DNA of 64,000 nucleotides from Peltaster fructicola. Its lineage: Eukaryota > Ascomycota > Dothideomycetes. The translations under genes were made by a program, and so were the position numbers. The stretch spans positions 1,426,001-1,490,000 of the forward strand of contig CP051142.1 of the NCBI GenBank assembly GCA_001592805.2. The letters run 5' to 3'. Positions 46,153-64,000 of the stretch are shown here, piece after piece (within the stretch, counting starts at the first letter, position 1; every line of letters begins with the position of its first letter). The notes below the pieces were generated by a model. It made no database searches. It was not told where the DNA came from and saw only the letters and a program-made list of their open reading frames with translations.

Positions 46153-47429
46153 CTAGTCGGAGTCATCGCCAGAGTCACCATCATCGGACTCGTCAGTAGA
46201 GCTGCTGTAAGTTGAAGCACCATAAGTGGTAGACTTGGAGCCGTAGCTGCCGCTCTTGCCGCCAGACTCACTGCAAGGAGTAATGGCCGTCTGTCCATCA
46301 CAATACTGCACCCAGCCATCAAGGTTCATGTTCTTGACGACTGTGCTGAAGTCGTAGCTGTTTGTTGTCTTGCCCATATCGTTGCAGAATGAAATGTCGC
46401 TGCTGCTGACGGTGTTGGCGTCGTTGGTCTCATCACCCTTAGGGTATTCGATATGGAATACTGGCTTCTCGGCCTTGATGTAGGCATCGAGTTTGCCGCA
46501 CTCGTTGTACTGAGCACACTGCTCGTTGACCTGGAATGCGGTCTTTGAGATGACTTGTGGAATGATGGCTGCAGCGTTCTTGAGACCAGTAGAGATGTTG
46601 TATGTGGCAGCGGTATCTGAAAGGAAGTTCATGAAGTCGACTGCTTGATCTTGAGTCAATCCAAGACCGTTATCGTTACTCTGTGGCAGTGTCAGTGGAC
46701 AGTCGGCAGCGTGGCAAGGGATTAACATACGTAACCATCGACGTTGTCTGGGTCAATCGAGTCGCAGCCCATGTCGTGAGCGTACTTGATACGATTGGCC
46801 ATGATGTTGCGAACGTTAGGGCTCGATACGTTGAGCCACTTCTCCTTTGGCCAACCCTTGAGCACGAGACCCTGGTCAGCTGCGGTGAACTGAGAAGAGT
46901 CTGGTCGGCCTGGTTCGTAGGAGCCGGCACTGAAGTAGCAAATCACACGCTTGCCTTTGGAGTGAAGATAGTTGACAGTGTCCTTGGTGTTGGTGAACAT
47001 GTCGATGTCCCAAACGTCAACGTTTGGAGTGGGTTGGTCGGCATTGAAGTCTAGCTTCAGTGGTGTAAGAAGGGCGATCTGCCATGATGCGTTGAGTGGT
47101 GGCTGGTAGATACCGTTCACATATGGAGTGACGGGCGATGAAGAAATGTTACCCATGCCTGGAGTTGCAAGATTGGACGTTGAATGAATGGATGCGTTGC
47201 CCGAGGACGAGGAAGAAGATGATGATGATGAGGAAGATGAAGAATCCGACGAGCCTGCGTCGTTGTTGTTGTCGTTGTTACTGCTTTGGCGGTTTCTGGT
47301 CAAACCGACTCCAAGGCCAACAGCAAGAGCGATGATGACAATAGCAGCGACGACAGAAAGAATGATATAAAGAGAGCGGCGTCCACGGCGACGGGGTTGA
47401 CGTGAGGGGAGTTCTTCCTTTGTCGCCAT
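46153..47429 (-). CDS. Membrane-anchored GH114 endo-galactosaminidase, Ega3-like (two exons)
   Basis: Exon 1 is 46731-47429, the intron 46681-46730 (50 nt, GTATGT...CACAG), and exon 2 is 46153-46680, giving 408 residues. A short basic cytosolic start is followed by one membrane helix (YIILSVVAAIVIIALAVGLG), a Ser/Asn-rich stalk, then the GH114 (TM1410-like) barrel: WDIDMFTN, CYFSAGSYEPGRPDSSQF and GCDSIDPDNVDGY, where the aspartates are the expected catalytic and binding residues. A Ser/Gly-rich tail ends it. GH114 enzymes cut alpha-1,4-galactosamine linkages. In A. fumigatus Ega3 is likewise anchored and sits in the galactosaminogalactan cluster. The AGD3-, UGE3- and GTB3-like genes to the right make the same role likely here. 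The exact Ega3 orthology is inferred from context. Confidence 0.85.
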
Positions 47430-49211
47430 GATGCTGGAATATGTATGTTTTCTCGCCGGATCCGTGATGGCGTTTATGGCGATGTGATCGTGTCAGGTTA
47501 GAGCTTTAGATTAGCAGGATCACTGCCGGGTGTGCAAGTGCTCAACCGCGATTGGCGTAGTAGGAGCCCTATGAGTGAAGGCCAAGAGACTTGCCGTTAA
47601 AGCAGTCAATGCAAGCGAGGGCGGTAGGAGGGAGGAAGAGTGTGCGACCAGTGAGAGCGCCGCAATTTCGCAAAGCCGTAATGAGTCGTCGTCGTTTCAG
47701 CTGCACGAGTATGCCTCCGGGCGGATACACGCAGTGTCAAGGGGCTAGCCGGAAGAATGGCAGGAAGGAGTAACACGTGCCAGGTACTGGAGTTGAGGGA
47801 TCTGATGTGAACGGTGATAGACGATGGTGTAGATCTTGTGCAGGATCTCGAACTCCTTATGCTCGTCAGATCTTGAACTCCTTCTTTCGCCTTGCTGGGG
47901 ATAGAGTAGCGTCCGCTCCGAGTAAATTCGCGCAGTTACATGGCACTGCCCCAAGCACCTGTAACTGTCAACGTTTAATATTATGTAGTGGTACCGAGTG
48001 GCTCAGCACTGTAATGGTGACCACCCGTGAACCCTGTTTGCTACAGAGTGAGGACCATGTGAGGGCCAAGATGTCTGTGTCTCGCGAAGCGCGGTCTAGG
48101 CGCTGACCAGTTATTGCTGTACGTAACAGCTTGTATCGCCTGTCGAGGGAGTCTCTAGGGTATAGGAGGATTCGAACCGCTTGCAGCGAAGCATGTACAC
48201 GCTGACTGCAGAATGTAGGTAGGATTCAGCTCGGAATGTGTTCTGGTTGACCGTGCTGTGCCTCTCTGCAAAGTGCCAGCACGTGCAGAAACAGATGGAG
48301 GATTATGCCTTGGCCAGGTCTAGAGCGTGCAGACGGAAGCTGCCGTAGACCCACATCTTGAAATGTTTTAGGGTCGACCGTTCCTTGCACCCAGCAGAGA
48401 CGCCAATGCAGTCAGAGCCCTATTGGCACCAAAGGATCGCAGTGATTCCTTTCGCTTGAGCGTCCGCCGGTTGAGATCTACAGCCGATTCTACCATTTCT
48501 GATGATGCGAGCATCGTGTATACTGCAACGTTGCTCGACTTTCGTCTCGTCATCAACCACAATGATGCAACACGAGGTCTCTACCTGGGAATGTTGTCAG
48601 CGTCAAGTGAGGCCGCCGGCCGAAAGGCTTGCAGAGATTGCATCCGCAATTTCTCATCTGCCCGGCGTCTACACGAGCCCAGGACCCTTGGCGGTGTCCG
48701 TGTCAATCCAGAGGCTGCCTGATTGCAACAGTGCGTTGCCAAGGTTGTCTCGACGACCGGCGACCACGTTGGAGCAGGAACGAGAAGCGACACCTTACAA
48801 AGAACGCGAGGAATGTACTCCTGTCGAGAGTCAGTATACCGTCCCATCGTCACCGCGCCGCAATCCCACGCCAATCACTAAAAAGCATGTAAGACAATCT
48901 CTGAGCTGTCGATCGATGATGAGCTGCTCAGAGCTCCCAAGGCAGCGCCTAGCAGATCAGCGCTTACATGCCAGGTAGTGGTTGATGACAGTAGTGAAAC
49001 AAGCCTGTGAACAGTGAGGAACATGCATTCTTCATCTACAGTACGTATGTCGTCTCTTCATCCCTCTGCGCCATCTTGCGCTCCTGCGTCCTAGCAAGGT
49101 TTCAAAACGCCTGTGCGACGTGGTAGGTCATTTTGGCGATGTAACGCCTGCTTCTCCATTGTGTGACATCTTTCTCACCACGCCGCAGTCGTGCGTTGCT
49201 CAGGAATATAT
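47430..49211. other. 1.8-kb intergenic stretch within the cluster
   Basis: It contains the promoter of the GH114 gene at its left end and the 3' region of the AGD3-like gene at its right end. Open frames reach 158 codons (48502-48978, plus), with disordered composition and no motif. On the minus strand a GGTTCGAATCC box occurs near 48170 but is not part of a foldable tRNA. No gene is called. Confidence 0.45.
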
Positions 49212-51361
49212 CTAGGCGACCAGAGGCAAGGCCTTGTCCAGTGTGAATGTTACTGGCGAGCCACTGAGGGATGCCCAGATAGTCAACGGGTCTGATCCGA
49301 TCTGCTCATTGGTGGTTCCTGGTGCAGTCGTGCTGGCGCCGCTCGGAAAGGTGACAGGAACAGGCACAGAACAGGAGTTGCCATTGGCAGCGCCGACCGT
49401 GACGCTTGTGATGCTGCTGTTTGAGCTGTCATAGTTCCACTGCAGCGTAGGCTTACACTTGTCCAAAGCCATTCTGTTCAGAAACAGCACACCAAGGTCA
49501 TCATGCTTCAGTGTCAGCATCGGCCATGTGGTCAATCTGTTCATCTCTTGCACAATTGTCTCAACCCATACCATCAACAGTGACATCTTGCCGGTCTGGT
49601 CGCCTACAGTGAAGGTATCAGTGTCGATATATCTCATGTTTGCTTGGTGAAACATGTAAGGACTGTGATGCAGGTCAGTTGTGTTGGTAATGGATAGTAA
49701 ATCAACGACTTACTCTTGATGAAGGCCGAGAAGATGTCGTGAATTGACCTGAATAGCATTCACCAGCAGGTCGTTGAAGTTGCCTTTGCCTGCTGAAGTC
49801 TTGATCCATTCCTCTGTTGTGCAGTTGGCAAAGTCGCAGTTGTAATATATCGTAGTAGCCCACCGAGGAACTATTGTAATGCCGTCGTAACCATTGTTTG
49901 ACACATTGCTGATGTGTGGCCAGTACTCGTTGTGTGGACTCATCAGCACACGTGTGTTGTCACCAACGCAGGTAGTGATGCCGTTGTCGGCCCAGGCTCG
50001 AAGGGCATCTCCATTGTGAAGACCAGTGATAGCCGGTGGGATGAGACCATTCTTCGAGAAGCGTTGTGCCTGATCAATGCCCATCTGTTTCAGCCAGGCG
50101 ATGTTGAAAGCCAGCTCACGGTTGACATCTGAGTAGGTCGCGTTGTTCTGATCCTCATGAGCAAAGGTGTGGGAGACATGAGCGTACGAGTTGAGGTTTG
50201 TCGTGTTGAGAAACCACGAGCCAAGTGGATCGAGCATGGAGCAGTTCAACGACCAGGCGAAGTTGGCAGGACTATCAGGCCAATTGTTCACACCCGATCC
50301 AATAGGCTTTTGCCACTCAAGCGGTACTGCCTTCTGATCAGGATATTCGATACCAGTGTCTGGATTGCATTGATACGGGTCAGTGCCTTTATCCTGGATC
50401 TGAACAGCTGACTGGATGTTGCCATTGCCGTTGTGGCCAAGCTCGACGAAGTAATTCGAACCAGCTGGCATGCGAGAGTGTATACTGGTGACCCATGGAA
50501 TGTGTGCATCAAGGTCTGCGGGTCGAATGCGGAACTGAGCACCCTTAGGATAGTAGATATCCGTCACAAGACCTACATCGTCGATTTGAGTGCTGAAGTA
50601 GATTCTTCGACGACCAGCATACAGTCCTCGAGTAAGCCAATTGATATAGGCGTGCTGCAGAAAGTTGGATGTTGCAGACCAGTCTGTTGCCCAGCTCATG
50701 AACCATGCCATCTGCTGGCGATTGCCAAATGTGTTGATGACTGCAGCAGTAGAGCTGTTGGTGAATGTGCCCTTGCTCGATGCCTCGAAACGTGCAATCT
50801 CGATCGTGGTCTTGGGGTCGGTGATGGTTGCGGGATAGTGGTAAAGGCCAGAAGTGCTCATAGTAGCACCAGTCTTGATGTTGGCGGTGGGAAACTTGCT
50901 GTTGTCGCTGATGCTGACGAGCTGCTCCTCGCCGGGTGCACAACAGCCGACGCCCTGGGAGGACACTGTAGAGCCATATAGAGGGCCTGGATAGGCATCC
51001 AGACGGACCATGCGAGCGCCGTAGCGAGATTGGTAGTCATAGATCTGGTTGAATTGATCGTTTGTCAGCGCACTGTGCCAGACACCGCTATAGTTGTATG
51101 CGACCTCGCTAAGCAGCAGGAAGCCTCGAAGTTGCCGGTCGAGTTGTCAGAGGAGGTGAGCGGAGGTAGAGATATGCCTTCTTGGGGAACGATCTGCAGC
51201 TGATATGGGATGCCGTATGCATTGAAGCCGGAGGTGGCTGAATATGCGAGAGCTTGTGTGCGTGCGAACACAAGGATGGTACTGTTTGTCGAGATCGCAC
51301 ATGCAGGGTAAGCTGCAAGGGCCACCGCAAAGGCCAAAGTACAGAGGAGGGACGCTGCCAT
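49212..51361 (-). CDS. Secreted polysaccharide deacetylase, Agd3-like (CE18); frame slip near 51120
   Basis: A signal peptide starts at 51361 (MAASLLCTLAFAVALAAYPA). The intron is 49663-49713 (51 nt, GTAAGT...CACAG). With the frame slip accounted for, about 699 residues are coded. Motifs recognised from Agd3 are FSTQIDD before TDIYYPKGAQFRI, the glycine-rich ELGHNGNGNI, the metal-site segment HVSHTFAHEDQNN, CVGDNTRVLM with SPHNEYWP, and the C-terminal HQDPYMFHQANMRY that spans the splice junction. Near 51115-51125 the frame changes as if one G were missing before GFLLLSEVAYNYSGVW; both sides are clearly coding. Agd3 removes acetyl groups from GalNAc units of secreted galactosaminogalactan, making it cationic and adhesive. 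It is neighbour to GH114 and epimerase genes. Confidence 0.88.
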
Positions 51362-52534
51362 TGTAGATGAGGTTCGTTGATGACTCTGCTACACCTATGA
51401 CTGCTGATATCAAAATCGTTCGCTTGAGAAGGACGTTCCGCAGTATTTAGGAACAACCTGGTGTCTAGCCTGGCCGCTTCTTTCCTTCGTGATCGTACTA
51501 CACGACCTGCAAGCACGCCTCTTGAGCCTTCAGCCGGACCTTGAGCAGGATGCACGGTGTCTTGGGCGAAGCCTGGCCACATCTAGTCCTCGCTCCTGTG
51601 GCATCGTGGAACAACGTGCGAGCAAAATTACCTCACATTGTAGCAAGCTCATACAGGCTATCGCGCCAGGTGTGAAGACCTGGCATTGTGGCAACAGGAT
51701 GGCGGCGCCATGCTTGATGTGATCGAGGAACTGTGCCAAACAGGCTAAAGCAGGTGTCGTCGAACTCATCTTCGAACGGTTCTTGACACTAGGGTGTTGG
51801 TTCTCACCAGAACGACAAGGAGGGATGGGTGTGCTCTTGGCATATTGTTGTGTCGTATGGAATGATAGAACGTGATCGTTTGGCAAAATGGTATCAATCT
51901 GATAAGGCAATAGTCTAGGGAAGGAGCCATTGGGCGGCCCGCTGTGTGGTCAAAGCACTTCACAACAGCTTGTGAACCTCACAGACTTTCTTGACCTTAG
52001 CAAACACATCTTGTTGCGCTATTTCACGATATGATCAGCGCGACCCTATGATCTGAAACGTGCCTGAGGGCAAGCATTGAGTTCTCGCGAAGGATCATCA
52101 TGCATGATGACAGGTCAGAACTCAAGAAGCAAGCGTGCCACTACCACCCTTAAACCTCGAATACTATCCGACGTGACTCTGAGGTTACAATGGAGGTGGA
52201 ATGCTGCAACGACAGCATGTTGCGTGCACTACGGACAGACCGAACGTTTGGAGTCCAACAGCAACGTGCTTTTAACGCAGTATCGTGCACAACGTGCTCT
52301 CTATACAGCAACGTGCTTCATCACAGCACATTGTCTCATGAACACGTGCCCTTCCAACAAACAGGGCTACACAAAGTTCAATCTTGGTTGTCACGTGCGA
52401 ACAGGACTGAAAGGCTGTACACTGGTTCCTTGATTCAACTACAAACGCCATATGCGTGTCTAATGCTCCGTCAAATGCATGCTTTCGTTCGAACTCGTAA
52501 GATTTGCTTTGTTCAGCAGACCTGTCGAACGGAG
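51362..52534. promoter_or_regulatory. Upstream region of the AGD3-like gene with clustered ACGTG cores
   Basis: These 1.17 kb lie between the AGD3-like start and the 3' end of the small secreted protein gene. Between 52200 and 52400 the octamer AACGTGCT occurs three times (52263, 52291, 52310), with further CGTGC and CACGTG cores (about 52225, 52284, 52351, 52395). ACGTG cores are bound by bHLH and bZIP factors in fungi. Whether this array is active is unknown. Confidence 0.4.
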
Positions 52535-52902
52535 TTAGTACACTTTCCGGTGCTTAAGGTCTTCTTCTATGGCACTCACAGCTGGAACTGGCTCCGGGCA
52601 TCCACCAAGGCTCTTCTTGTAGCAAGCAAGCTGTGCAGCAGCTTGGCATTCGCAGAGCTGGTCGAGCGATCAGTCTCCTGCTTGCATATCCCAGATGATT
52701 GACTCACCGACTTGGCATTCAGCTCTGGGTGGCACTCTGCCGGTGGACAATCGCAAGGCTGCCTGAAGTCGGTAACGTGCTCGTGACCGATGTGATGGAC
52801 GTCGGGCAAACTAAGGCTGACGGTCTGTGGGAGGATAGAAGCAACATCGGCGAAGGCGGTCATCGCCAAGGCTGCAACAAGAGCAAGGATGGAGAACTGC
52901 AT
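52535..52902 (-). CDS. Small secreted Cys-rich protein (two exons, 105 residues)
   Basis: Exon 1 (52708-52902) opens with a signal peptide (MQFSILALVAALAMTAFADV) and ends PCDCPPAECHPELNAKS. A 50-nt intron follows (52658-52707, GTGAGT, branch-like CTGAT, CCAG). Exon 2 (52535-52657) continues LCECQAAAQLACYKKSLGGC and then PEPVPAVS. The seven or eight cysteines in a CxC...CPP...C / CxC...AA...CY...GGCP pattern look like a family of small secreted fungal proteins of unknown role. The unspliced frame would miss all distal cysteines, which supports the intron. It lies between the AGD3-like and UGE3-like genes and so inside the putative exopolysaccharide cluster. It could be a matrix protein, an effector or a bystander. 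Confidence 0.68.
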
Positions 52903-54656
52903 GATTCTGCTGGACAAGAGACTGGAGAAGAAGCTGGTCTGAGATTGTCGATTCTTGTTGATGACGGGCGGCTGAGATATATCTCGAGGAGCTGGTACTT
53001 CACTGCTGTCTGACATTTCGAATCTGACACGGCAGGATCTCCACCGTATATCCTCTTCGTCGACGTGGTCTGCTTTCGAGCCTATGCTTACAGTTGGCCG
53101 GCGATGCAGATCAGCACTCTCCTCGGTGGTACGCAAGCACTCGTGTGTGGTAGCACTCAGCAGAGACGTCCGGTGGAGAGTATCAGCAATCCCTGTTGCT
53201 TGGTGCAAGCTATTTTTCTCCAGATATGCAGTCGTCCCGACTGTGGAAAAAGCTTGGCCTGAACTTTACGGCTATAGTGCAAGATCCTGCGCGCGCCATT
53301 TTCGGCTGGGTCTGGCTACACAACAGGGGCTACCCTGTCTGACGCAGAACAGGCCAACGTGCATCTCCTCTGTCGCCGTGATGGCTGTAAGGCTTGAAGC
53401 TTGCCGCCAATATTGTGCAGATGCCTGCTGAAAAGCTTTTTTAGGCTCTGCTGACGAGAACACGGATGTGACAAGGCCAAGCACGAGCATCTGGCGTGAT
53501 TCACTCTCACCTCCGCAATGATCAACAGCAATTGCGTGTCGCCCAACTCGTTGCGTCTGGCATCTGGTCCCATGCACCGCGAGAGCTTCACATGTCTTAC
53601 GCCCGGAGCACCTCGATTTGCATTCCAACGCAATGGTTAGGCACGTGGGGCTTGAACCACAGGAACTCGGCGGAAAAGCAGACTTTACAATGCCATTCGA
53701 AAGCACAAACCGCGGGTCTTCGGCCGGTGCTCATCAAAGCACGTTCTCCGGTCTAGCTTTGCACAATTTACACACATGCATACAACCTTCGGGTGCATGT
53801 CCACATCGCAACGACGTATTGCACCATCTCTGTTGCCATCAGCAACATGATCCATGCTCCTTGTACGAGGCAGCATTAGCGGCAAGCAGTGCTGACAGCT
53901 CTCGGTTCATCATGGTTACAGTCTGAGGTTCCGTATGCATCTTACGAGCACGAAAATGCTTGTTGCAGCCCCCAGTGCAGCTAGGGAGTTGTACAAATAC
54001 TCTCTTGGCAGCTTATTCGGGAAAAGCGTAGGACCAATTACAGCCCCTGTGCGAACAACTCCCAAGCCTTACACTGCACAGACGGTGAGGCGTGCTCAAG
54101 GACGTTTTCTTCGGTTGCCTCTCGCTAAGTATCCACGGTTAGTGACCAACGGCACTTCCTTCTGCGCGCCGTTACGTTGTGGACATTCGCTCAGCTCTCC
54201 TATGGCAGGGCGTGGCTGACAAGCGGAGGCCTCGACGAACGGCCAGGCTAGGTGCTGGCTCATGCTCTCTACGTGTGAGCTACTGGTCTCGCTATTTCCT
54301 ACCTCAACCAGGATCGAGCAGGACATTGCACTGACCGTAGCTTTGACTACCTTCTTTAAACTTTGCCAGCGATCTGTTTGTCTGGTCGAGCGGATCCCAA
54401 TAGCACACTGTCCTACAACCATGCGTGTTCCTGGAAGGACCAAGAGAGTTAAATCTAGGCCGAGCGCTGCACTGATCCAACATGACTTGCAGTCCAGTAT
54501 ACCTCTATTCTTATATAAGACCTCCACTCCTCACCTCCAACTTCTCTTGACCAACAGTCAATCGTTTTCGTCTTTTCATTCAAGCGAACAGCATCATCTA
54601 GCGTTGCTCACTTGCCTTCAGAAGACACTCCTTCGCATTCACAAACATCATCACAC
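52903..54656. promoter_or_regulatory. 1.75-kb divergent region, small secreted protein / UGE3-like
   Basis: These are divergent starts with a long gap, as is common for regulated surface-polysaccharide genes. A TATATAAGA-like element (TCTTATATAAGACC, about 54508-54521) lies about 140 bp before the UGE3-like ATG and, if used, would set its transcript start. Open frames reach about 145 codons without protein character. No other element is recognised. Confidence 0.45.
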
Positions 54657-55998
54657 ATGTCAAGCACAATGCGTCGATCGCTCTCTTCCAAGAGCTCGAA
54701 CTCTTCTCTGAGCTCGCCTGCCTCATCATACCAGGAGGAGCCTCAGTCTCCTTTGGAGCCATATGATGCCAATCGTGACTATGTCATGGTCATTGGCGGT
54801 CTTGGCTACATCGGATCTCACACAACTCTCGAGCTGTTGAAGGCCGGCAACAACGTTATCGTTGTCGACAACCTCAGCAATGCCTTTGAGACTGTCTTTA
54901 CCCGCATCCAGAAGCTCTCAAAGGACCACTGGGCAGCACAGGGCAAGGACGCTCCATACCTCAAGCTGCACAAGATGGACTACCGCAGTCCACTCATGCG
55001 CAACGTCCTCGGACGCTACATGATCAGAGCACCAGCATTCGGTGAGACACGATTGTCACACATCGCTGGTGTCATCCACTTCGCAGCCTACAAGTCTGTC
55101 TCAGAGTCGATTGAGAAGCCACTCGACTACTACCAGAACAACATCTGCGGCCTGGTCGAGCTGCTCATCCTCCTCGGAGACTTCGGCATTCACAACTTTG
55201 TCTTCTCATCCTCGGCCACAGTCTACGGCTCCAAGGCCAACGAGGGCAAGCCCCTGCACGAGGAGCACCTCGTCCACCATCCACAAATGCACACTGATGA
55301 ATCAGGTGCAGAAGTTACGCTGGTTCCAGGCGCTGCCGGAATCACGTCACCATACGGACGAACCAAGTACTTTGGCGAGGCTATTCTCGCAGATGTCGCC
55401 GAAGCCAACCCATCTTGGCGCATCACTGCACTCCGCTATTTCAACCCTGTCGGCTGCGAGGAAACTGGCATGCTCTGCGAGGACCCTCGCCAGAAGCCAA
55501 CCAACCTCTTCCCAGTCATCTCTCAAGTGTTGACCGGCAAGAAGCCCATTCTCGAGGTCTTTGGATCCGACTGGGAGACACACGGCACCGCCGTTCGTGA
55601 CTTCATTCATGGTAAGTTGATGAATGGTGTACCGCAATCAATTTTTCCCGCGAGAAAGCTGCTAATACCCCTGACTAGTCTCGGATCTTGCCCTCGGCCA
55701 CTTGGCTGCGCTCAAGGCTGCCCCAGAACGCCCACCACAGCACGCTTTCCGCTCTTACAACCTTGGCACAGGCTCGGGATCTACTGTCGCTGAGGTCGTC
55801 GCATGCATGGAAGTTGCGGCTGAGCGCCAAGTGCCCAAGGTCATGTCTGGTCGAAGAGCCGGTGACGTTGGCTATTGCGTCGCTATGACCGACCGTGCTA
55901 CCCGCGAACTGGGTTGGTCGACCCAGAAGAGTATTGCCGAGTGCGCGTCCTCGTTGTGGAACGCTCTCAAGGTCTCTGGGCAGCTTGCATCAGCATAG
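54657..55998 (+). CDS. UDP-glucose 4-epimerase, Uge3/Gal10-like (two exons)
   Basis: Exon 1 is 54657-55611, the intron 55612-55678 (67 nt, GTAAGT, branch-like GCTAATAC and CTGAC, CTAG), and exon 2 is 55679-55998, giving 424 residues. A Ser-rich extension of about 30 residues precedes the Rossmann motif GGLGYIGSHTTLELL. The short-chain epimerase elements are complete: VIHFAAYKSVSES, the catalytic Ser in SSSATVYGSK, and the YxxxK pair in SPYGRTKYFGE. The end reads YNLGTGSGSTVAEVV. The enzyme interconverts UDP-glucose and UDP-galactose, and Uge3-type forms also UDP-GlcNAc and UDP-GalNAc. Position between AGD3-like and GTB3-like genes argues for Uge3 over housekeeping Uge5, but substrate range cannot be read from sequence alone. 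Confidence 0.9.
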
Positions 55999-58012
55999 AC
56001 CATGCTCTTGTTAATCTAGAGATCTGCATCGATCTCAACTTCACGACAACAGACGAAATTTTTGCATACGAGGCCCACGTGTATTACAGCATGGTGGAGC
56101 ACCGATATTATTCAGGCGATGGCTATTGCTTTGCTACTATTGATTGCTTGGCACCGAGCAAAACAAATCACATAGTCTTACGAGCATTTATGAGGAGTAA
56201 AAAGGGGAACAGTGCACCTTGGCATAGTCATGCGGGTTACAAAGGGGACAAGGATACCATTTATTGCGTAAGATCTACACAATTGATTCAATCTTCATTT
56301 CTTTCCACACACACACACACACAATGTGAGTTGGCAACAGCGTGAGGATTGGCTGTAGAGAGTAGTTTTCGTCTCGTGACGATCATCTTGGCGGGTATGC
56401 CATGACCTATCAAACTATCGATACACTGCATGTCCTGGGTGATATGCTACATGTCCCTGCGAGCGAGGTGTGTCAACCAGCGGGACATTTGTTACACAGA
56501 TGATGTGCTGGAATGCCACCTGACTGCAACGTCGCTTACGCAAGTCATCAGCACGTTCTTCCACTGCCTATTCTCGAATGTGACACGGAAACGAGAAAAG
56601 GTTGTGTAGCTGCTGCCCTGCAATATGCAAAGCCAGTTCTCGTGCATGCAGTCAACATCAGCAGCACGCCACTGCCAACTACCTTCGCATGCACCACCTC
56701 GTGCAGGAGGGACAGCATAAGCAGCACAGCATTCATGTACACACACTCACACTCACAGTCTTTTAGACTCCCAGCCATGCGATCTGTCTCACTCACTCGC
56801 TCTCTCCCACTCGTACTCATTAATCTCGTGTCGGCCCTAAGCGTGTCTCAAACGACTGACCTCGTGGCAAACGTGACACAACGGTATAGCGCACTGTGGC
56901 ACACAAGATAATCTCCTCTGTGGTCTCTTTCCGCCAGCCCTGGCACAGAAAAACGAAGAACTCGGATCATGCCCAGGCAGAGCAAGACTCTATTTGTGAC
57001 AGCCAAGGGTTAGCCGAAAGCGGCGTAGTGAGTGTCTAGCTAGCGAGATTTCCAGCTCACACCATCCTTCTCGATCTCTGCCACTGCAACCCTTAACATC
57101 CAGCTCTAATTTGTCCCAGGGCACAACCACAGAAAGTCTGCTTACCGATCCCGCTATCACGCACATCGTACCTGACTATCACCTCAGCGCCGTCTTGCTC
57201 ACTCACAGTAGCTCTCACTCTCACCCGGCTCACTACTGCAGCTTCATCTGTCTGCGTGAAACACACACTTGCCGCGTGCGCGCGCGGAGGAGCCTGGGAG
57301 GATGCGCAGCGGGCTGCTCAACTGAATATTCCCGAGGAGTGCACAGCACTAGTACGGCCTGGCTCAACTCTCACAGCATTATTAAACCCTGCATCAGCCT
57401 GTATTGCTAATTGCGGATCAGCCATTTAGACTTCCACAACTTGGTACACGTTGCCGGTACGTACCATACCATGGCTACCGTCGATGAAAAGCTTCTCGCC
57501 TTGGGCTGCTAGCATGCTTTCCCACTATCCTGATCGGCCGAGATCTACGCTCTGGCTCTTGTTGCAGTGCAGGAAGTCTGTTGCTCCGCCTTTGGCCCAA
57601 TGGCTGGCTCAAGCTACCGACACATGGCTCGGCCAGTGCGCTGGGTCTCGAGTGAGCATTGCCAAGTCTGGTCGATCAGGCGAACGGACCGACAATAGAG
57701 GTGAGCATGCGATCCTGCTATGGATCACATCAAGGACCTGTCCACTATACTGTATGCAGCTGCAGACGCCTGATGTCAGGATACCTTATTTTCTTCGCCT
57801 TCTTCATATTACTGCTCAGGATCACCTACTCCTTCCCCTCTCTACCAACACCAACTGCTTTTCACAAGCACTGTGTTTCGCTCTCTACACTAATCTTCTC
57901 CCTCCATGGACTGCACCACGAGCTCATGACGTTTTGTGCACATGACTTGCTCTAGGTGATCCGACCCTTCTCTAATCCTCTCCATCCTGAGCTCGAGGAG
58001 CTCTGCTACGCC
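55999..58012. promoter_or_regulatory. 2-kb region upstream of the GTB3-like gene
   Basis: This is the longest gap in the window. It holds a (CA) run at about 56308-56324, CA/CT-rich patches (56738-56760, 57200-57230), a GCGTGCGCGCGCGG patch (about 57275-57288) and pyrimidine-rich DNA for some 150 bp before the ATG. No conserved gene is seen. It probably combines the UGE3-like 3' UTR with a long promoter and leader of the glycosyltransferase gene. Confidence 0.45.
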
Positions 58013-61000
58013 ATGTCTTTCGCTACCAACCCAGACGTTTATAACGTCAACCTCACCGAGCCAGAGCCAGCCCTCCTCACGAACGCCATCATCGACACAG
58101 ACCTGAAATACATCTCAGCGCAATGGACGAGGTACATCCTCCTCATCGTAGCAGGCAGCGTATTCATGCTAGGCTTGGCTATGATCATCGTACGCTATGC
58201 TATAAACCACCTTCCCGGACTGGCTGCGAAGCTTGCAAATCGAACGAAAACACCTAGTAAGCCAAAGGCGAAGAGATCGGCATTTGGTGGACGAAGGAAC
58301 AAGCTGAAGACTGCAACTCCGGATCTTACTTCGAGCTTCGACAAGATCAAAGCCTTTTCCTTCCACAACTACGATCCTTTAGCACAGAATGCACCGCAGG
58401 AGGACACCAGTATGCACATTGTCAAGCTCTCGGATGCCAAGGTGTCTAGAGAGGCGCTCAGCAGACACGCAACACCAACGCCAACACGACCTGTCACACC
58501 AGCCGCACCACCAGTTCGACCTCCAATGGTACAGCGACAATCGACGCAGGTCATCTTTGGCTCTGTCAACATGGCGAGGCTGTCCTTCGATGGTGGCCAC
58601 AGGTCGCAGAATAGTGATGTCTCACTCATGACCGACCTGATCAACGAGGCACGAATGGAACAGGGCCTCAATGGTCTTATCCTCTGCCACCGACCTGGTG
58701 ACTCCATCAGCTCCACCGACCGAATTTTGAGACAATTTCGACAACAGCTTGTGCCAATCATCCTACAAGCCGAAGCCAGCGAGGATCTCTGGGATGTGCT
58801 CGATTACAACTTGGTGGATGGTGTTGTTGTCGAGAACGCTTGTATCCAGAGGAATGGTCAGCGGCGTGACTTCTTCCGCGCGGCTCGCGTTCGGGACATC
58901 GCCGCGCAAAGCAAGGAACACAGAAAAAACCGCTCGGGCTTCTTCTTCGGGTTCCTCGAGATCTACGACGAACTGCCAACTGCTGCTGTCATTCGACGAG
59001 CCTACAAGCTCGCAGACTTCTTCGGTGCTCTGCTCGAGCTGAAGGACGGCAACGCCCACCCGATTGCTGACCCAATCAAGGAAATTCCTCTGAGTGCCTT
59101 CGACTCACTGAAGAATGCTGACATTGCATGGCTGCAGAAAGCATGGTCGAACTGTGTCAGCTTCGGAAACGAGGCAGTCCCGACATCAGCCATTTCGCCT
59201 TCAGAAGGCACATTCGATCTTGATCTCTCGGCTGTCGCTGAGGTCATTCCAGATGCCCACCACCTCCTCCGACTCCACCCTATCGATCGAAGAATGTCCT
59301 TCCCTCAGGGCACTACCCTCGTCCATGCACCAGACTACATCTCTGGAGCACCACAAAGAAAGAGCATTTGGGATTACACGAGTTGTGGTACACCCTTGGC
59401 TCTCGACGGCTGCTTCGCCTTGAGAGAAGAGATCACAGAGGAGCAGTACAGTCTGATTTTGAGGATGCAAAAGAGCTTGAAGGAGCGACGAATGCTCCAG
59501 CTCTACGGTGAAGCAGAAGTCTTGCGAATCTCTCAAGCGCTGAAGGATTTGGCAGAGACGACTGCGTACCCGGATTGTCTCACAGAGCTGCTCGAGGGCT
59601 TCGTCAGTGGAAACATCAAGGTCCTTGCTGGTCTTGATAGCGGTTTCTCTCTGCCAGACTCTGGCGGCCAGATCTGGGGTCTCATTGACACCACGAACGA
59701 GCGTGAAGGCCGCCTCGACATCCACATCTCACTGAGAGCTGCCAGCGATGTTGCTACAGTCTGGCACATCTTTCTGGCACACCGTGGTGTCTCGAGACTT
59801 GATCGATTCTCAGAGGAGTCTCTCCTCAACAAGAAAGCAGCACCACTGCCACTCAGCATCGCACGGGAACTGGAAAACTCGGCAGAGTCAGAGCTGATCT
59901 ACCTTATGCAGCAGATCCAGATGTCCGGCACTGATCATCCATACCAGGATGCTATCATCAAGCACGCCACGCGACTCCTCCTGCAGGAGACAAGTCGACA
60001 GGCTTGGGTCACTCTGCATTCCAAAGCTTGCCTTGACTCTTCTATCAGCATGCGTTCTCTGCTGCAGCAAAGACTCACTTACCACATCTCACTTGGCGCA
60101 CGTCAGCTGCCTTCTATAGAGGGTCTTGTCGAGATGTTTGAGCATCTTGAGGTGGTTCTGGAGCGAGCTCTTCTCTACTGTGACCGTGTATCAATGGAGA
60201 AGCTCACGAGCAGCATCACAGAGGCATACGGTCACGCTGGTAAGCGCTTCGAGGTCACTCCTCTGGCTGATCTTTATGGTCTGCTCTACTTCTGCGCTCT
60301 ACGCAAGCTGGCCTTCGAGAACGTCTACATTGAGACCACCGACAGATGTCCATTCTTCCTCTCACAGCCTGATCAGGCCGCTGTGTTCTCAGAGCTGTGG
60401 GTTCTTGGATCACAGTGTGAGATCTACTTCGGCATCCTCCCTCGAGCGCTTGGTGAGATCACCTACGAACGCTATCGCCAGCATCTTGTCTCCTTCCCTC
60501 CTCCCGTCTCATCATGGGATGGCAAGGAAGTCTTCACAGCTTATGGTACTCCTCCACCCCGTGTGAAGGCCATCTCTTCTCTCTCTGGCACTGTGCCCGA
60601 CCAAAGTGCAGAGGAGAAAGCAGAGAATCCACGAGGACCTCCCAAGCCTGCCAAGTACAGAGAAGCTTTCCGACAAGTCGGTGCACTCTCCATCTTCTGT
60701 GTACCAGCTATCATCGATGTCACCCTCCTGTGCTTCACAGGCCGAGGTCTCTATCTCTCTGCATGGCTCTCAGGCATCATGAACAGCCCAACCGATCAAG
60801 ATCCAGTCGCCAACTATGCTGGTCTCGGTATCTTAGCTGCACTGATTTTGACTGGTGGTATCACTGGTTGGGTCGGCAGCTCTGGTGGCTTCTACCTCTT
60901 CAACTATGCCTTCGACAACATGACGCACTTCCTTGTCCATCGCTTTTCTGGTTCTCTCATGCTGACAACTGGTGTTGCTATCCTCGGCTTTATCGGCTTC

Positions 61001-64000
61001 GGTGCACATCCAAACGTCGGCTGGCTCAAAGCGTTGATCTTCGTGCTCTACCTATACCCTCTCTGTATCTTCCTAACGCTGCTGGGTATCTTCGCCACCA
61101 TGCACAGAGCCGATTCGCCCCTCCCATCTGGTCGAATTTCGATGTGGAAGTGTATTCCAATCTTGTTCATCTCGCCAATTGTCACAAGCTTCGTACGCAG
61201 TTACGATCTGCTGATCTACCTCATTGTGGTCTACGCTTTTACCTTCTCTCTGTTTTGGGAGTTCCGTCGTCTATGTCATGCATGGACCAACTGGCATCTC
61301 AAGGTTCCATCACCATTGAAGGAGAACGATCTGCTCAAATGGTTCAAGGACCTCAAACCAGAGAGCAAGGAGCTTGATTCTATCGCCTTGGCTGCAGCCG
61401 CGCGATCGGCACTGTTCGATGCTCTTGATCAGGACAACAAGGGCCAGGCAGCCTGGTTCAAGAAGCCACCTCGAGATGCTTTTGCCGCAAAGATCAATGA
61501 TGGCTTGCCGGAATCATTGTTCTTGCTCAAGAAGGAATGTGCCGGCACAGAAATGCCAGAGATGTTCACTACTACTTGGTTTGTGCAGCTTGAACTTGCG
61601 CTGAACAACCAGAGGCAACTCATGCGAGGTCTTCGTGAGCACAGCGCTTTCATCAACTACCGCTACTCGCGATACGATATCGCACAGAACGTCGGTCTCT
61701 TCTTGGGAGCACTTCTCGACCGCATTATCCTTATCGTGATGAGCGCACGAGGAGATCCACCCAGCCTCTACACCTTGGCTGGCACAACACGTTACGCCAT
61801 TTCCTTCGCCCTGCTCTACTTCCTCTGCGGTGCCCTTTGTGTTGATCTCGTCCTTCAGCGATATTGGGCATATGCTTCGCAGGTCTCGACCAAGCGACTT
61901 GGTGGTATCAGCGATATGCAAGACGTGCTGAACAACGAGGAGAGACAGCGAAAGCGCCGCTACTGGAAAGCAGTATCAGAACTGTTCAGCCTCCTATTCA
62001 TGATCTTCGGCATTGCCACCTTCCTGGTCTGGCTCTTCGTCACCGAGAAGAACGATCTCATCTTCTTCTTCGCTTATGTCTCGAGTTACACAGCTGTGCT
62101 GCTTTGCCAGTTCCATCGGTGTTTCACCAAGAGCCACCGTATGCACGTCATCACAGTGCTTACGTGCTGCGCCGTTGGCTTCGTCGTCGGGGTCATACTT
62201 CGTGCCCTGCCAGCCACTGCACACTTCGAGTTCAGCGCTGTCATTGCACAGAATATTGCATGTCTTGCAGCACTTGTCGGAACAGCTTATTGGATTTTCC
62301 ACAACCCGAACACATCTGCCAAGGGCCTCGATGCTGCATCGAACGAGTTCAAGGCTGCCGGCCAACCTGAATGCAATGTTGTATCTCACAACATAACTGG
62401 CTGCGGTGAAGTTCACAACATGAACAAGAAGATTCTCGACCATGTCTGTCTTGGTATCGATGTCAACACAGCCTGGTCGACCTTGCATGAGGATGTTCGT
62501 AAGCTTATTGTTGGTCGTCTTCTGGGACATTCGACTGGATTGACACCAATAGCTAAGTGCTGGGTTGGTGGCCGTGAGGTCAGCATTGAGCGACACGATG
62601 AGGACCTTCGCGATTGCATCCAAAGCTTCGATCACCGCTTCTCGCAACTCTCTGCCCCAGGTAGCATTGCTGCTGACGAGTGCGAGCTTACATCGCAGTA
62701 CGTGAGAAAGTCGCCACCAAAGACATTCTTCGTCCGCGCAGCTACCAGCATCATGCAGGGCTTGGATAATTTCACCAAGTGGACTGCCATCATCTCTGGT
62801 GGTACTCCCGACACTCCTCGTGAGTTGTGGTACGCTCTTCGTGGCACTCGTCTGCGACCGACTGTGCTTTGGGTGCTTCTCAAGATCTGGAAGCTTTGCT
62901 GGTGGTCTCGCATTCTTTGCGTCCACGTCTTCGCTGTCGCCGGCAAGCCTACACTCGGCTCCCTCCTTGATCTAATCTACACCGGTGCTCGAAGAACGCT
63001 CCGTGGCAACACCATCACTGTCAACACTCCAACATGGAAGATCACTGGTTTTGTGGCACGCAGTCCACTCAAGCAGCTTGGTATGATCATGTACGAAGGC
63101 ATCCACGCCAAGGCACCTAGCCAGAAGCGACCGATTGCTGTCAACTTCTACGATGACAACCACAGGCTGCGACGTCGTCAAGACATTCGTGGTCCAAACG
63201 AGAAGCCAGTCGAGACGAACTATACTTACCTCGAAAAGAGCGCAACCCGATGGCCACTCTGCAAGACAACTATCGATGGCAACAACGAGCTGCGCTGTAA
63301 CTACGACGCTTGGGGTCGACCAATGAGTGGTGAAGTTGTTCGAGGCGACGCACGCTGGGACTACCAGTACTTCTACAAGAAGGGCGCTGCCAACGATTCC
63401 GAAGTTCTCCATGCCACCTACCAGCGAGTTGACGGCGAAGCCTCCAACAGCATCTCAGTCTTCTGGTGTGTTCGACCACGTAATACTTCCGAAGATGTCA
63501 ACGACTGGATTGCTTCTGACAAGGTGCAATCTGTGCTGGCAGTGATCAACAACCAGACTTACGAAATCCGATGGGTCTACAAGCACGCACAAGGTGCTGA
63601 GGTCCAGGCTAGTATTCTTGACAAGCGAGGCAAGCGCCGACCTTGTCTGCCACCAGCTGAGATCCTGGACGACAAGCTCAAGTTCTTGAACAAGCCAAAG
63701 GAAGTCAGCTTCGATCGTGAGGATCTCCTCGTCTACCACCCGCTAAGCACGCTTCAGCGTATGTGTCGACGAGAGCCTGGCTGGATCTCCCGAGTCTACC
63801 ACGCAGTCACTTCTATTCCGCCTCTCAAATGGTTCCGTCTTGGTGAGCATGTTGTGTCTCACAAGCTTCCAACCGCCACACTCCGTACTGCTGTGTGGAC
63901 AGCTTGGGCAAAGGCCCCATTCGTTGACGCCGTCACTGCCTCTGTTCTCGATGAGATGATTCTCCGCAAAGAGCCATTGCTTAAGAAGTACTGGTCACTT
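58013..64000 (+). CDS. Giant membrane glycosyltransferase, Gtb3/Gt4c-like (partial, C-terminus beyond right edge)
   Basis: The frame is open from the ATG at 58013 to the edge: 1,996 codons with no intron and no slip. One membrane helix lies near residues 42-65 (ILLIVAGSVFMLGLAMIIVR). A large non-membrane region with a barrel-like part follows (FGSVNMARLSFDGGHRSQNS). From about residue 890 to 1425 comes a block of a dozen helices in two groups (for example GILAALILTGGITGWVG, IFVLYLYPLCIFLTLLGI, and LFSLLFMIFGIATFLVWLF). Then a soluble region carries RRQDIRGPNEKPVETNYTYL and tandem beta-rich parts. This very large mixed architecture is that of the A. fumigatus GAG-cluster glycosyltransferase Gtb3 (Gt4c), thought to polymerise and move the chain across the plasma membrane. 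The GT4 catalytic core is not seen and may lie downstream. Identity leans on size, layout and neighbours. Confidence 0.78.
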   Translation, partial: MSFATNPDVYNVNLTEPEPALLTNAIIDTDLKYISAQWTRYILLIVAGSVFMLGLAMIIVRYAINHLPGLAAKLANRTKTPSKPKAKRSAFGGRRNKLKTATPDLTSSFDKIKAFSFHNYDPLAQNAPQEDTSMHIVKLSDAKVSREALSRHATPTPTRPVTPAAPPVRPPMVQRQSTQVIFGSVNMARLSFDGGHRSQNSDVSLMTDLINEARMEQGLNGLILCHRPGDSISSTDRILRQFRQQLVPIILQAEASEDLWDVLDYNLVDGVVVENACIQRNGQRRDFFRAARVRDIAAQSKEHRKNRSGFFFGFLEIYDELPTAAVIRRAYKLADFFGALLELKDGNAHPIADPIKEIPLSAFDSLKNADIAWLQKAWSNCVSFGNEAVPTSAISPSEGTFDLDLSAVAEVIPDAHHLLRLHPIDRRMSFPQGTTLVHAPDYISGAPQRKSIWDYTSCGTPLALDGCFALREEITEEQYSLILRMQKSLKERRMLQLYGEAEVLRISQALKDLAETTAYPDCLTELLEGFVSGNIKVLAGLDSGFSLPDSGGQIWGLIDTTNEREGRLDIHISLRAASDVATVWHIFLAHRGVSRLDRFSEESLLNKKAAPLPLSIARELENSAESELIYLMQQIQMSGTDHPYQDAIIKHATRLLLQETSRQAWVTLHSKACLDSSISMRSLLQQRLTYHISLGARQLPSIEGLVEMFEHLEVVLERALLYCDRVSMEKLTSSITEAYGHAGKRFEVTPLADLYGLLYFCALRKLAFENVYIETTDRCPFFLSQPDQAAVFSELWVLGSQCEIYFGILPRALGEITYERYRQHLVSFPPPVSSWDGKEVFTAYGTPPPRVKAISSLSGTVPDQSAEEKAENPRGPPKPAKYREAFRQVGALSIFCVPAIIDVTLLCFTGRGLYLSAWLSGIMNSPTDQDPVANYAGLGILAALILTGGITGWVGSSGGFYLFNYAFDNMTHFLVHRFSGSLMLTTGVAILGFIGFGAHPNVGWLKALIFVLYLYPLCIFLTLLGIFATMHRADSPLPSGRISMWKCIPILFISPIVTSFVRSYDLLIYLIVVYAFTFSLFWEFRRLCHAWTNWHLKVPSPLKENDLLKWFKDLKPESKELDSIALAAAARSALFDALDQDNKGQAAWFKKPPRDAFAAKINDGLPESLFLLKKECAGTEMPEMFTTTWFVQLELALNNQRQLMRGLREHSAFINYRYSRYDIAQNVGLFLGALLDRIILIVMSARGDPPSLYTLAGTTRYAISFALLYFLCGALCVDLVLQRYWAYASQVSTKRLGGISDMQDVLNNEERQRKRRYWKAVSELFSLLFMIFGIATFLVWLFVTEKNDLIFFFAYVSSYTAVLLCQFHRCFTKSHRMHVITVLTCCAVGFVVGVILRALPATAHFEFSAVIAQNIACLAALVGTAYWIFHNPNTSAKGLDAASNEFKAAGQPECNVVSHNITGCGEVHNMNKKILDHVCLGIDVNTAWSTLHEDVRKLIVGRLLGHSTGLTPIAKCWVGGREVSIERHDEDLRDCIQSFDHRFSQLSAPGSIAADECELTSQYVRKSPPKTFFVRAATSIMQGLDNFTKWTAIISGGTPDTPRELWYALRGTRLRPTVLWVLLKIWKLCWWSRILCVHVFAVAGKPTLGSLLDLIYTGARRTLRGNTITVNTPTWKITGFVARSPLKQLGMIMYEGIHAKAPSQKRPIAVNFYDDNHRLRRRQDIRGPNEKPVETNYTYLEKSATRWPLCKTTIDGNNELRCNYDAWGRPMSGEVVRGDARWDYQYFYKKGAANDSEVLHATYQRVDGEASNSISVFWCVRPRNTSEDVNDWIASDKVQSVLAVINNQTYEIRWVYKHAQGAEVQASILDKRGKRRPCLPPAEILDDKLKFLNKPKEVSFDREDLLVYHPLSTLQRMCRREPGWISRVYHAVTSIPPLKWFRLGEHVVSHKLPTATLRTAVWTAWAKAPFVDAVTASVLDEMILRKEPLLKKYWSL

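What the first reader, a model, noticed from the sequence alone, without database searches (positions are those of the whole stretch)
46153..64000. Putative galactosaminogalactan (GAG) exopolysaccharide cluster
Ega3-like GH114, Agd3-like CE18 deacetylase, Uge3-like epimerase and Gtb3/Gt4c-like giant membrane transferase lie in consecutive order. This is the gene set that makes the adhesive cationic GAG polymer of Aspergillus. Here the two lytic/modifying genes face left and the two synthetic genes face right from a central divergent region. The flanking genes (Rrn11-like, RING-H2) are ordinary housekeeping types, so the cluster has a sharp left border. If this is a non-Aspergillus fungus, it would indicate GAG-like matrix in its biofilm.
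Basis: partly seen in the sequence, partly recalled or inferred. Interest (0 to 1): 0.8.

Follow-up and report, generated by a model that had tools for sequence, protein, structure and literature searches.

The report
Adhesive-sugar gene cluster in apple-surface fungus
This stretch of the apple-skin fungus Peltaster fructicola carries most of the known gene set for a sticky sugar polymer called galactosaminogalactan, but one set member sits on another chromosome and the deacetylase gene is interrupted in this genome sequence.

Summary
The four genes are real, in the stated order and orientation, and form a locus of a known kind: the galactosaminogalactan (GAG) cluster of Pezizomycotina. The genome is Peltaster fructicola (sooty blotch of apple; Dothideomycetes): five contigs, 18,987,130 bases, and a 100% protein match on a contig of identical length. 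The deacetylase matches solved Agd3, the hydrolase the solved endo-alpha-1,4-polygalactosaminidase. The epimerase is not the housekeeping one, which lies on contig 3. The giant transferase is an intact 2702-residue protein running 2121 bases past the window; listed relatives include proteins of Neurospora and Trichosporon asahii. (1) The fifth gene, sph3, is not here; the best candidate is intact on contig 1. (2) The clustered agd3 changes reading frame near its start and no intron fits; an intact serine-rich paralogue lies on contig 1. Biological break or assembly error is open. (3) A small secreted cysteine-rich protein is predicted between agd3 and uge3. GAG production is likely but unproven. 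New member of a known kind, moderately interesting because the set looks partly dispersed.

The parts
46153..47429 (-). ega3-like endo-alpha-1,4-galactosaminidase (GH114), two exons (47429-46731, 46680-46153; intron 50 nt), 408 aa, N-terminal hydrophobic segment, Ser-rich stretch
   Evidence: Splice and translation; Pfam GH114 130.9 and 111.5 bits; PDB 6ojb 276 bits; hydrophobic segment 22-40
49212..51361 (-). agd3-like GalNAc deacetylase (CE18): hydrophobic signal-like start, CBM87, CE domain, C-terminal domain; intron 49713-49663 (read by eye); reading frame broken near its 5' end
   Evidence: (6nwz, 531 bits)
51125..51131 (-). place where the agd3 reading frame changes; in 8 of 11 relatives compared, the two pieces cut at the same residues lie exactly one residue apart
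52535..52902 (-). predicted small secreted protein, 105 aa, 7 cysteines after a signal-like start (judged by eye), one intron (52707-52658); membership of the cluster is inference
   Evidence: model; no Pfam family for a 98-aa version; no significant paralogue in the genome for that version
51362..54656 (.). stretch between agd3 and uge3 (holds the small secreted protein model); ACGTGC is the most locally crowded of 1884 hexamers in the window here (6 in 500 bases from 52058)
   Evidence: not significant after allowing for all hexamers and places
54657..55998 (+). uge3-like UDP-glucose/UDP-GlcNAc 4-epimerase, exons 54657-55611 and 55679-55998, 424 aa, Cys at the gate position
58013..64000 (+). 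gt4c/gtb3-like GAG synthase; continues to window-equivalent 66121 (G000:C4:1484013-1492121), 2702 aa, 12 hydrophobic segments in a simple scan, C-terminal GT4 domain and a DUF3492 match

Best explanation
The locus is the galactosaminogalactan (GAG) biosynthesis cluster of Peltaster fructicola. Uge3 supplies UDP-Gal and UDP-GalNAc. The giant membrane synthase (Gt4c/Gtb3) joins them into an alpha-1,4-linked chain and passes it out of the cell. Membrane-anchored Ega3 and, from contig 1, Sph3 trim the chain. Agd3-type enzymes remove acetyl groups so that the polymer becomes cationic and sticks the hyphae to a surface, here most likely the apple cuticle. Shown here: gene families, domains, open frames of three of the four clustered genes, the frame change in the fourth, and the off-cluster sph3 candidate and second agd3. 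Inferred from other species: every catalytic step, export, and the adhesive role in this fungus.
For: Agd3: 531 bits to solved Agd3 6nwz; 953 relatives at E<=0.001 among 5011 candidates. Ega3: 276 bits to the solved endo-alpha-1,4-polygalactosaminidase 6ojb (that this is A. fumigatus Ega3 is recalled). Synthase: 238 relatives among 7988 scored candidates; the 120 listed include Neurospora crassa Q872P1/B19A17.110 and Trichosporon asahii A1Q1_05471; both species are described as carrying GAG clusters (PMC11356417 and PMC4817252). Epimerase: 216 bits to 4lis against 607 for the contig-3 gene (that 4lis is A. nidulans UgeA is recalled); Cys opposite residue 307 of 1hzj (human GALE, recalled), Leu in the same register in the contig-3 gene and 4lis. 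The genome search found one synthase gene only, and it is here. Sph3 candidate on contig 1: 188 bits to solved spherulin-4 5d6t, with an N-terminal hydrophobic segment. GC of the locus is like its surroundings. The Agd3 catalytic residues named in PMC7229062 (passages) are kept downstream of the break: counting, 6nwz chain numbers differ by 122 from the paper's, and Asp-Asp, both His and the Arg match; the Met-x-His motif is in the last exon.
Against: No polymer, lectin or expression data for this fungus. The clustered agd3 is frame-broken in the assembly. sph3 is not in the cluster, and its orthology rests on similarity alone (39% to the solved chain); the spherulin domain after the synthase in an Aureobasidium record (P0133) is closer to a contig-2 gene (37%) than to the contig-1 gene (31%). 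The second GH114, on contig 3, scores almost as well with 6oj1 (250 bits), so Ega3 orthology rests on place as much as on score.
Confidence: 0.87

Rival explanations
1. The cluster is decaying: agd3 at the locus is a young pseudogene, and the organism makes no functional deacetylated GAG or relies only on the contig-1 paralogue.
For: Frame change with no intron to explain it. The assembly was polished with about 256x Illumina reads (PMC7181583, passage), and frame breaks look rare in a control: of 37 neighbouring pairs among 139 kinase-domain pieces (76,461 bases), 35 imply inserts of 43 bases or more and 2 imply 17 and 20. An open second Agd3 exists on contig 1.
Against: The part downstream of the break (620 residues after removal of one ordinary intron) is open, about 62% identical to its best-scoring relatives and keeps the catalytic motifs. 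Its branch (0.33) is shorter than that of the contig-1 paralogue (0.47), though longer than that of its nearest relative P0020 (0.23). A Nanopore-based assembly can hold a one-base error, and the kinase control sees only breaks that split a domain match.
Confidence: 0.3
2. A related but different GalNAc-containing polymer is made (for example galactosamine-poor or little deacetylated), because the gene complement differs: sph3 off-cluster, duplicated deacetylase, extra small secreted protein.
For: Composition varies between species: less pathogenic Aspergillus species make GAG with less GalNAc (PMC4619649, start of abstract). Two Agd3 copies in the genome, one with a long Ser-rich part. In Neurospora, deacetylase mutants bind particles that wild type hardly binds (PMC11356417, passage), so deacetylase state changes matrix behaviour.
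Against: The enzyme families and the gate residue of the epimerase are the standard ones.
Confidence: 0.2
3. Chance neighbours: four unrelated carbohydrate genes lying side by side, with the epimerase being housekeeping.
For: None found.
Against: The housekeeping-type epimerase is elsewhere; the one synthase gene found in the genome lies here; in several relatives the locus tags of agd3 and synthase differ by a few numbers.
Confidence: 0.02

Closest known systems
GAG cluster of Aspergillus fumigatus (uge3, sph3, ega3, agd3, gtb3/gt4c; PMC4817252, PMC8224951 passages)
   Same: Four of five gene families, adjacent to one another; the deacetylase and hydrolase match solved structures of these families
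   Different: No sph3 at the locus, best candidate on another contig; clustered agd3 frame-broken in this assembly and a second copy on contig 1
GAG cluster of Neurospora crassa (NCU05132-NCU05137; PMC11356417, passages)
   Same: Order by gene number there: synthase - epimerase - small secreted protein - GH135 - GH114 - deacetylase; here synthase - epimerase - small secreted protein (predicted) - deacetylase - GH114. A small secreted protein sits next to the epimerase in both
   Different: No GH135 here; deacetylase and GH114 in the other order; homology of the two small proteins not tested (no NCU05134 sequence at hand)
Agd3 and synthase relatives in other Dothideomycetes (Hortaea, Taxawa, Elsinoe, Aureobasidium, Venturia)
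   Same: Best named relatives of Agd3 (62%) and synthase (60% over 60% of its length) are from this class (class of these genera recalled); in several the locus tags of agd3 and synthase differ by only a few numbers
   Different: In one Aureobasidium record (P0133) a spherulin-4 domain follows the synthase in one gene model; in Peltaster the next gene is ADA2-like

Membership tests
GAG biosynthesis cluster (rule of PMC4817252) | Predicted glycosyltransferase of the Gtb3/Gt4c family | tested here: met
   P0121, 2702 aa; listed relatives include N. crassa and T. asahii proteins. Not compared with A. fumigatus Gtb3 itself
GAG biosynthesis cluster (rule of PMC4817252) | UDP-glucose 4-epimerase that is not the housekeeping one | tested here: met
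   Window gene 216 bits to 4lis, contig-3 gene 607 bits; Cys opposite residue 307 of 1hzj. Not compared with A. fumigatus Uge3 itself
GAG biosynthesis cluster (rule of PMC4817252) | Agd3/CE18 deacetylase gene present | tested here: met
   All three Agd3 domains present
GAG biosynthesis cluster | Deacetylase gene intact as one coding sequence (not part of the published rule) | tested here: not met
   Frame change in this assembly, which may be an assembly error. An open copy lies on contig 1
GAG biosynthesis cluster (rule of PMC4817252) | Hydrolase (GH114) or spherulin (GH135) at the locus | tested here: met
   GH114 present
Five-gene GAG cluster of Aspergillus and Neurospora | Sph3/GH135 gene within the cluster | tested here: not met
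   The five Spherulin4 matches in the genome lie on contigs 1 and 2, none on contig 4
GAG biosynthesis cluster | Organism makes an alpha-1,4 Gal/GalNAc/GalN polymer | not testable with these tools
   No chemical or lectin data; no paper in the library holds 'galactosaminogalactan' with 'sooty blotch', or 'Peltaster' with 'exopolysaccharide'

The most novel reading that the evidence does not exclude
In this compacted surface-dwelling genome the GAG locus is coming apart: the clustered deacetylase is truly broken, deacetylation has passed to a serine-rich duplicate on another chromosome, and sph3 has moved or been replaced. The stickiness of the matrix would then be regulated apart from its synthesis. 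In addition, a small secreted cysteine-rich protein beside uge3 (as in Neurospora) may be an overlooked sixth component.
Probability: 0.25. Interest if true: 0.55.

Novelty: new member of a known kind. Interest (0 to 1): 0.36.

Why it matters
It suggests that a fungus living on apple skin, with one of the smallest filamentous-fungus genomes (PMC7181583 abstract), kept an adhesive-polymer pathway best known from a human pathogen. That makes GAG a candidate for how sooty blotch colonies hold on to wax, and a natural case for asking what happens when the deacetylase is duplicated and the cluster dispersed. GAG clusters are already reported in many Pezizomycotina, so the kind is not new.

Tried and rejected
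Rejected: (a) housekeeping epimerase. (b) Recent horizontal transfer: no sign of it. GC of the locus is ordinary, and in a quick tree Agd3 sits with the contig-1 copy, a metagenome protein, Elsinoe, Myriangium and the Aspergillus chain 6nwz, at a fork drawn open (SH-aLRT 92). The tree has 46 rows: 43 of the 120 listed relatives, themselves the best 120 of 953, plus window, contig-1 and 6nwz rows, so it cannot exclude an older transfer. (c) A second complete cluster: the second GH114 (contig 3), the second Agd3 (contig 1) and the four spherulin-4 genes (five matches on contigs 1 and 2) are dispersed, and one synthase was found. (d) An intron as the cause of the agd3 frame change: against 11 relatives (of 120 listed), the pieces cut at the same residues lie exactly one residue apart in 8. 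In P0034 they are also one apart, but the N-terminal match runs two out-of-frame residues on; in P0001 they overlap by two residues; in P0012 the N-terminal match stops seven residues earlier. None leaves room for an intron. (e) Short synthase-like metagenome proteins (P0229-P0241) as a new family: the two that I read, P0230 and P0235, both end at the same SLFNP motif, which looks like a gene call stopped at an intron; not pursued.

Led nowhere: the own-genome search for paralogues of the small secreted protein gave only a non-significant hit (E 0.087), where I saw no like Cys pattern by eye. The MFS search scored only 9 of 240 candidates and was not used. No near-identical P. fructicola Agd3 or synthase appeared among the 120 listed hits of each search, although the database holds P. 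fructicola Sph3; cause unknown. Failed by form: a search term; a stretch with stops; repeated in correct form.

Full report
What the window is. The window is contig 4, bases 1426001-1490000, of an 18,987,130-base, five-contig genome. A contig-1 protein that I modelled is 100% identical over 310 residues to AMS68_001371 of Peltaster fructicola, on a record of 4,890,228 bases, the exact length of contig 1. The published assembly of strain LNHT1506 has 18.99 Mb in five chromosomes of 2.77-4.89 Mb with N50 3.68 Mb (PMC7181583, passages); contigs 1, 3 and 5 here have 4,890,228, 3,676,293 and 2,770,634 bases. P. fructicola is a Dothideomycete and a sooty blotch fungus of apple (PMC4786788, listing).

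The observation. The ega3-like gene is on the minus strand with two exons; both exons pass the GH114 cut-off, and the spliced protein scores 276 bits with the solved endo-alpha-1,4-polygalactosaminidase 6ojb. The agd3-like gene is on the minus strand; its main open part scores 531 bits with solved Agd3, and all three Agd3 domains are found. The uge3-like gene has two exons on the plus strand. The synthase starts at 58013 and ends 2121 bases past the window; it is 2702 residues long with no stop, has a GT4 domain and a DUF3492 match in its C-terminal part, and 12 hydrophobic segments in a simple scan. The Verticillium homologue is described as 2856 residues with 11 transmembrane regions (PMC13245733, passages). 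Flanks are Rrn11-like and RING genes on the left and ADA2-like, protein kinase and phosphoglucose isomerase genes on the right.

Is it the GAG family? The published rule asks for a transferase, an epimerase, a deacetylase and either a hydrolase or a spherulin (PMC4817252, passages; I also read its section 14); the locus meets it. The synthase search gave 238 relatives among 7988 scored candidates; the best named ones are Dothideomycetes, and the 120 listed include Neurospora crassa B19A17.110 and Trichosporon asahii A1Q1_05471. Both species are described as having GAG clusters; that the Neurospora entry is NCU05132 is my inference. The Agd3 search gave 953 relatives among 5011 candidates, 120 listed. 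Locus tags suggest that agd3 and synthase lie a few genes apart in some relatives: Taxawa H2203_005480/005477, Elsinoe fawcettii D9617_3g017860/017890, Venturia inaequalis EG328_006784/006786, Fusarium duplospermum CEP54_006446/006442. In Venturia effusa they are on different contigs. I compared such tags by eye, not for all hits, so this is inference from names.

The epimerase. The genome search with the window epimerase returned one other epimerase, on contig 3. My model of that one scores 607 bits with 4lis (A. nidulans UgeA, recalled), while the window gene scores 216 bits with it. In the alignment with 1hzj (human GALE, recalled) the window protein has Cys opposite residue 307 by my count; the contig-3 gene and 4lis have Leu at the same distance from the shared GDV motif. 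That this position controls acceptance of the N-acetyl sugar is recalled. In A. fumigatus Uge3 is bifunctional and Uge5 makes UDP-galactose (PMC4619649, passage). I had no A. fumigatus Uge3 sequence.

The hydrolases. A second GH114 on contig 3 scores 250 bits with 6oj1 over 248 residues, almost as well as the window gene (276 over 271), so the window gene is called Ega3 partly by its place. None of the five Spherulin4 matches in the genome is on contig 4. The contig-1 gene near 3161063-3161772 reads as three exons and matches an annotated 317-residue protein. It scores 188 bits with solved spherulin-4 5d6t (39% identity) and has an N-terminal hydrophobic segment. The contig-2 gene near 294466 scores 116 bits. 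Against simple orthology, the spherulin domain after the synthase in an Aureobasidium record (P0133) is closer to the contig-2 gene (37%) than to the contig-1 gene (31%). sph3 is reported as needed for GAG synthesis in A. fumigatus, but Neurospora hyphae lacking the GH135 gene stayed adherent (PMC11356417, passages).

The broken deacetylase. The window agd3 begins with a hydrophobic signal-like start in one frame and continues in another. The two pieces were searched apart against 11 of the 120 listed relatives. Cut at the same residues, they lie exactly one residue apart in 8; the other three are told in Tried and rejected; none leaves room for an intron. Downstream, the catalytic residues named in PMC7229062 (passages) are kept. 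A second Agd3 on contig 1 is open in two exons with a long Ser-rich N-terminal part, both exons matching Agd3 domains; I see no clear signal peptide in my model of its start. In the quick tree the contig-1 copy is sister to the window copy plus a metagenome protein (SH-aLRT 97), so the duplication looks lineage-specific; branches are 0.33 (window), 0.47 (contig 1) and 0.23 (metagenome protein P0020). As a control for assembly errors I took 139 kinase-domain pieces (127 of 135 candidates scored; 76,461 bases). Of 37 neighbouring pairs, 35 imply inserts of 43 bases or more and 2 imply 17 and 20. Frame breaks thus look rare in conserved genes, but the control sees only breaks that split a domain match. 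The assembly is Nanopore-based and Illumina-polished. I hold real break and assembly error about equally likely.

The small secreted protein. Between agd3 and uge3, minus strand 52902-52535, a two-exon model gives 105 residues with a signal-like start (by eye) and 7 cysteines. Pfam has no match for a 98-residue version, and the genome search with it found no significant paralogue. [quoted passage not shown] Whether the two are related was not tested.

Mechanism. Given the families, the expected path is: Uge3 makes UDP-Gal and UDP-GalNAc; the synthase polymerises and exports; Sph3 and Ega3 cut; Agd3 deacetylates so that the cationic polymer binds surfaces. These steps come from work in Aspergillus, Neurospora, Metarhizium and Verticillium (passages), none from Peltaster. 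Word searches in the main text of the two P. fructicola genome papers found nothing on the polymer. The library holds no paper with 'galactosaminogalactan' and 'sooty blotch', or 'Peltaster' and 'exopolysaccharide'. Six papers hold 'galactosaminogalactan' and 'Dothideomycetes', none in title or abstract; the one I looked into has the first word only in its reference list.

Verdict. A genuine GAG-type cluster, new for this species as far as these searches show, of a well-known kind, with a partly dispersed gene set and one interrupted gene that needs read-level checking.

Noticed in passing
window 52058-52393: Six ACGTGC hexamers within 500 bases upstream of agd3, the most locally crowded of 1884 hexamers in the window; not significant after multiple testing but placed in the region between the two gene pairs.
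   Followed up: partly
L001 (contig 3, 3076740-3077456): A second GH114 gene with a glutamine/proline/glycine-rich repetitive stretch before the domain (YQQ and GQYGPPQ repeats); 250 bits to solved 6oj1.
   Followed up: partly
L028 1796-4171 (contig 1, 4691196-4693565): Open serine-rich Agd3 paralogue about 197 kb from the contig end; by eye the ORFs listed around it are not GAG genes.
   Followed up: partly
L007 and L009 (contig 2 near 250150; contig 1 near 4209884): Two further spherulin-4 matches in long frames (548 and 576 aa; the first with one stop inside the match) with more sequence downstream; function unknown.
   Followed up: no
protein P0133 (Aureobasidium melanogenum): Synthase gene model that continues into a spherulin-4 domain, suggesting that a spherulin lies next to the synthase there.
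   Followed up: partly
L005 7632-8786 (right of the window, contig 4): Open frame with a long glycine-glycine-asparagine repeat, with an open frame on the other strand too.
   Followed up: no
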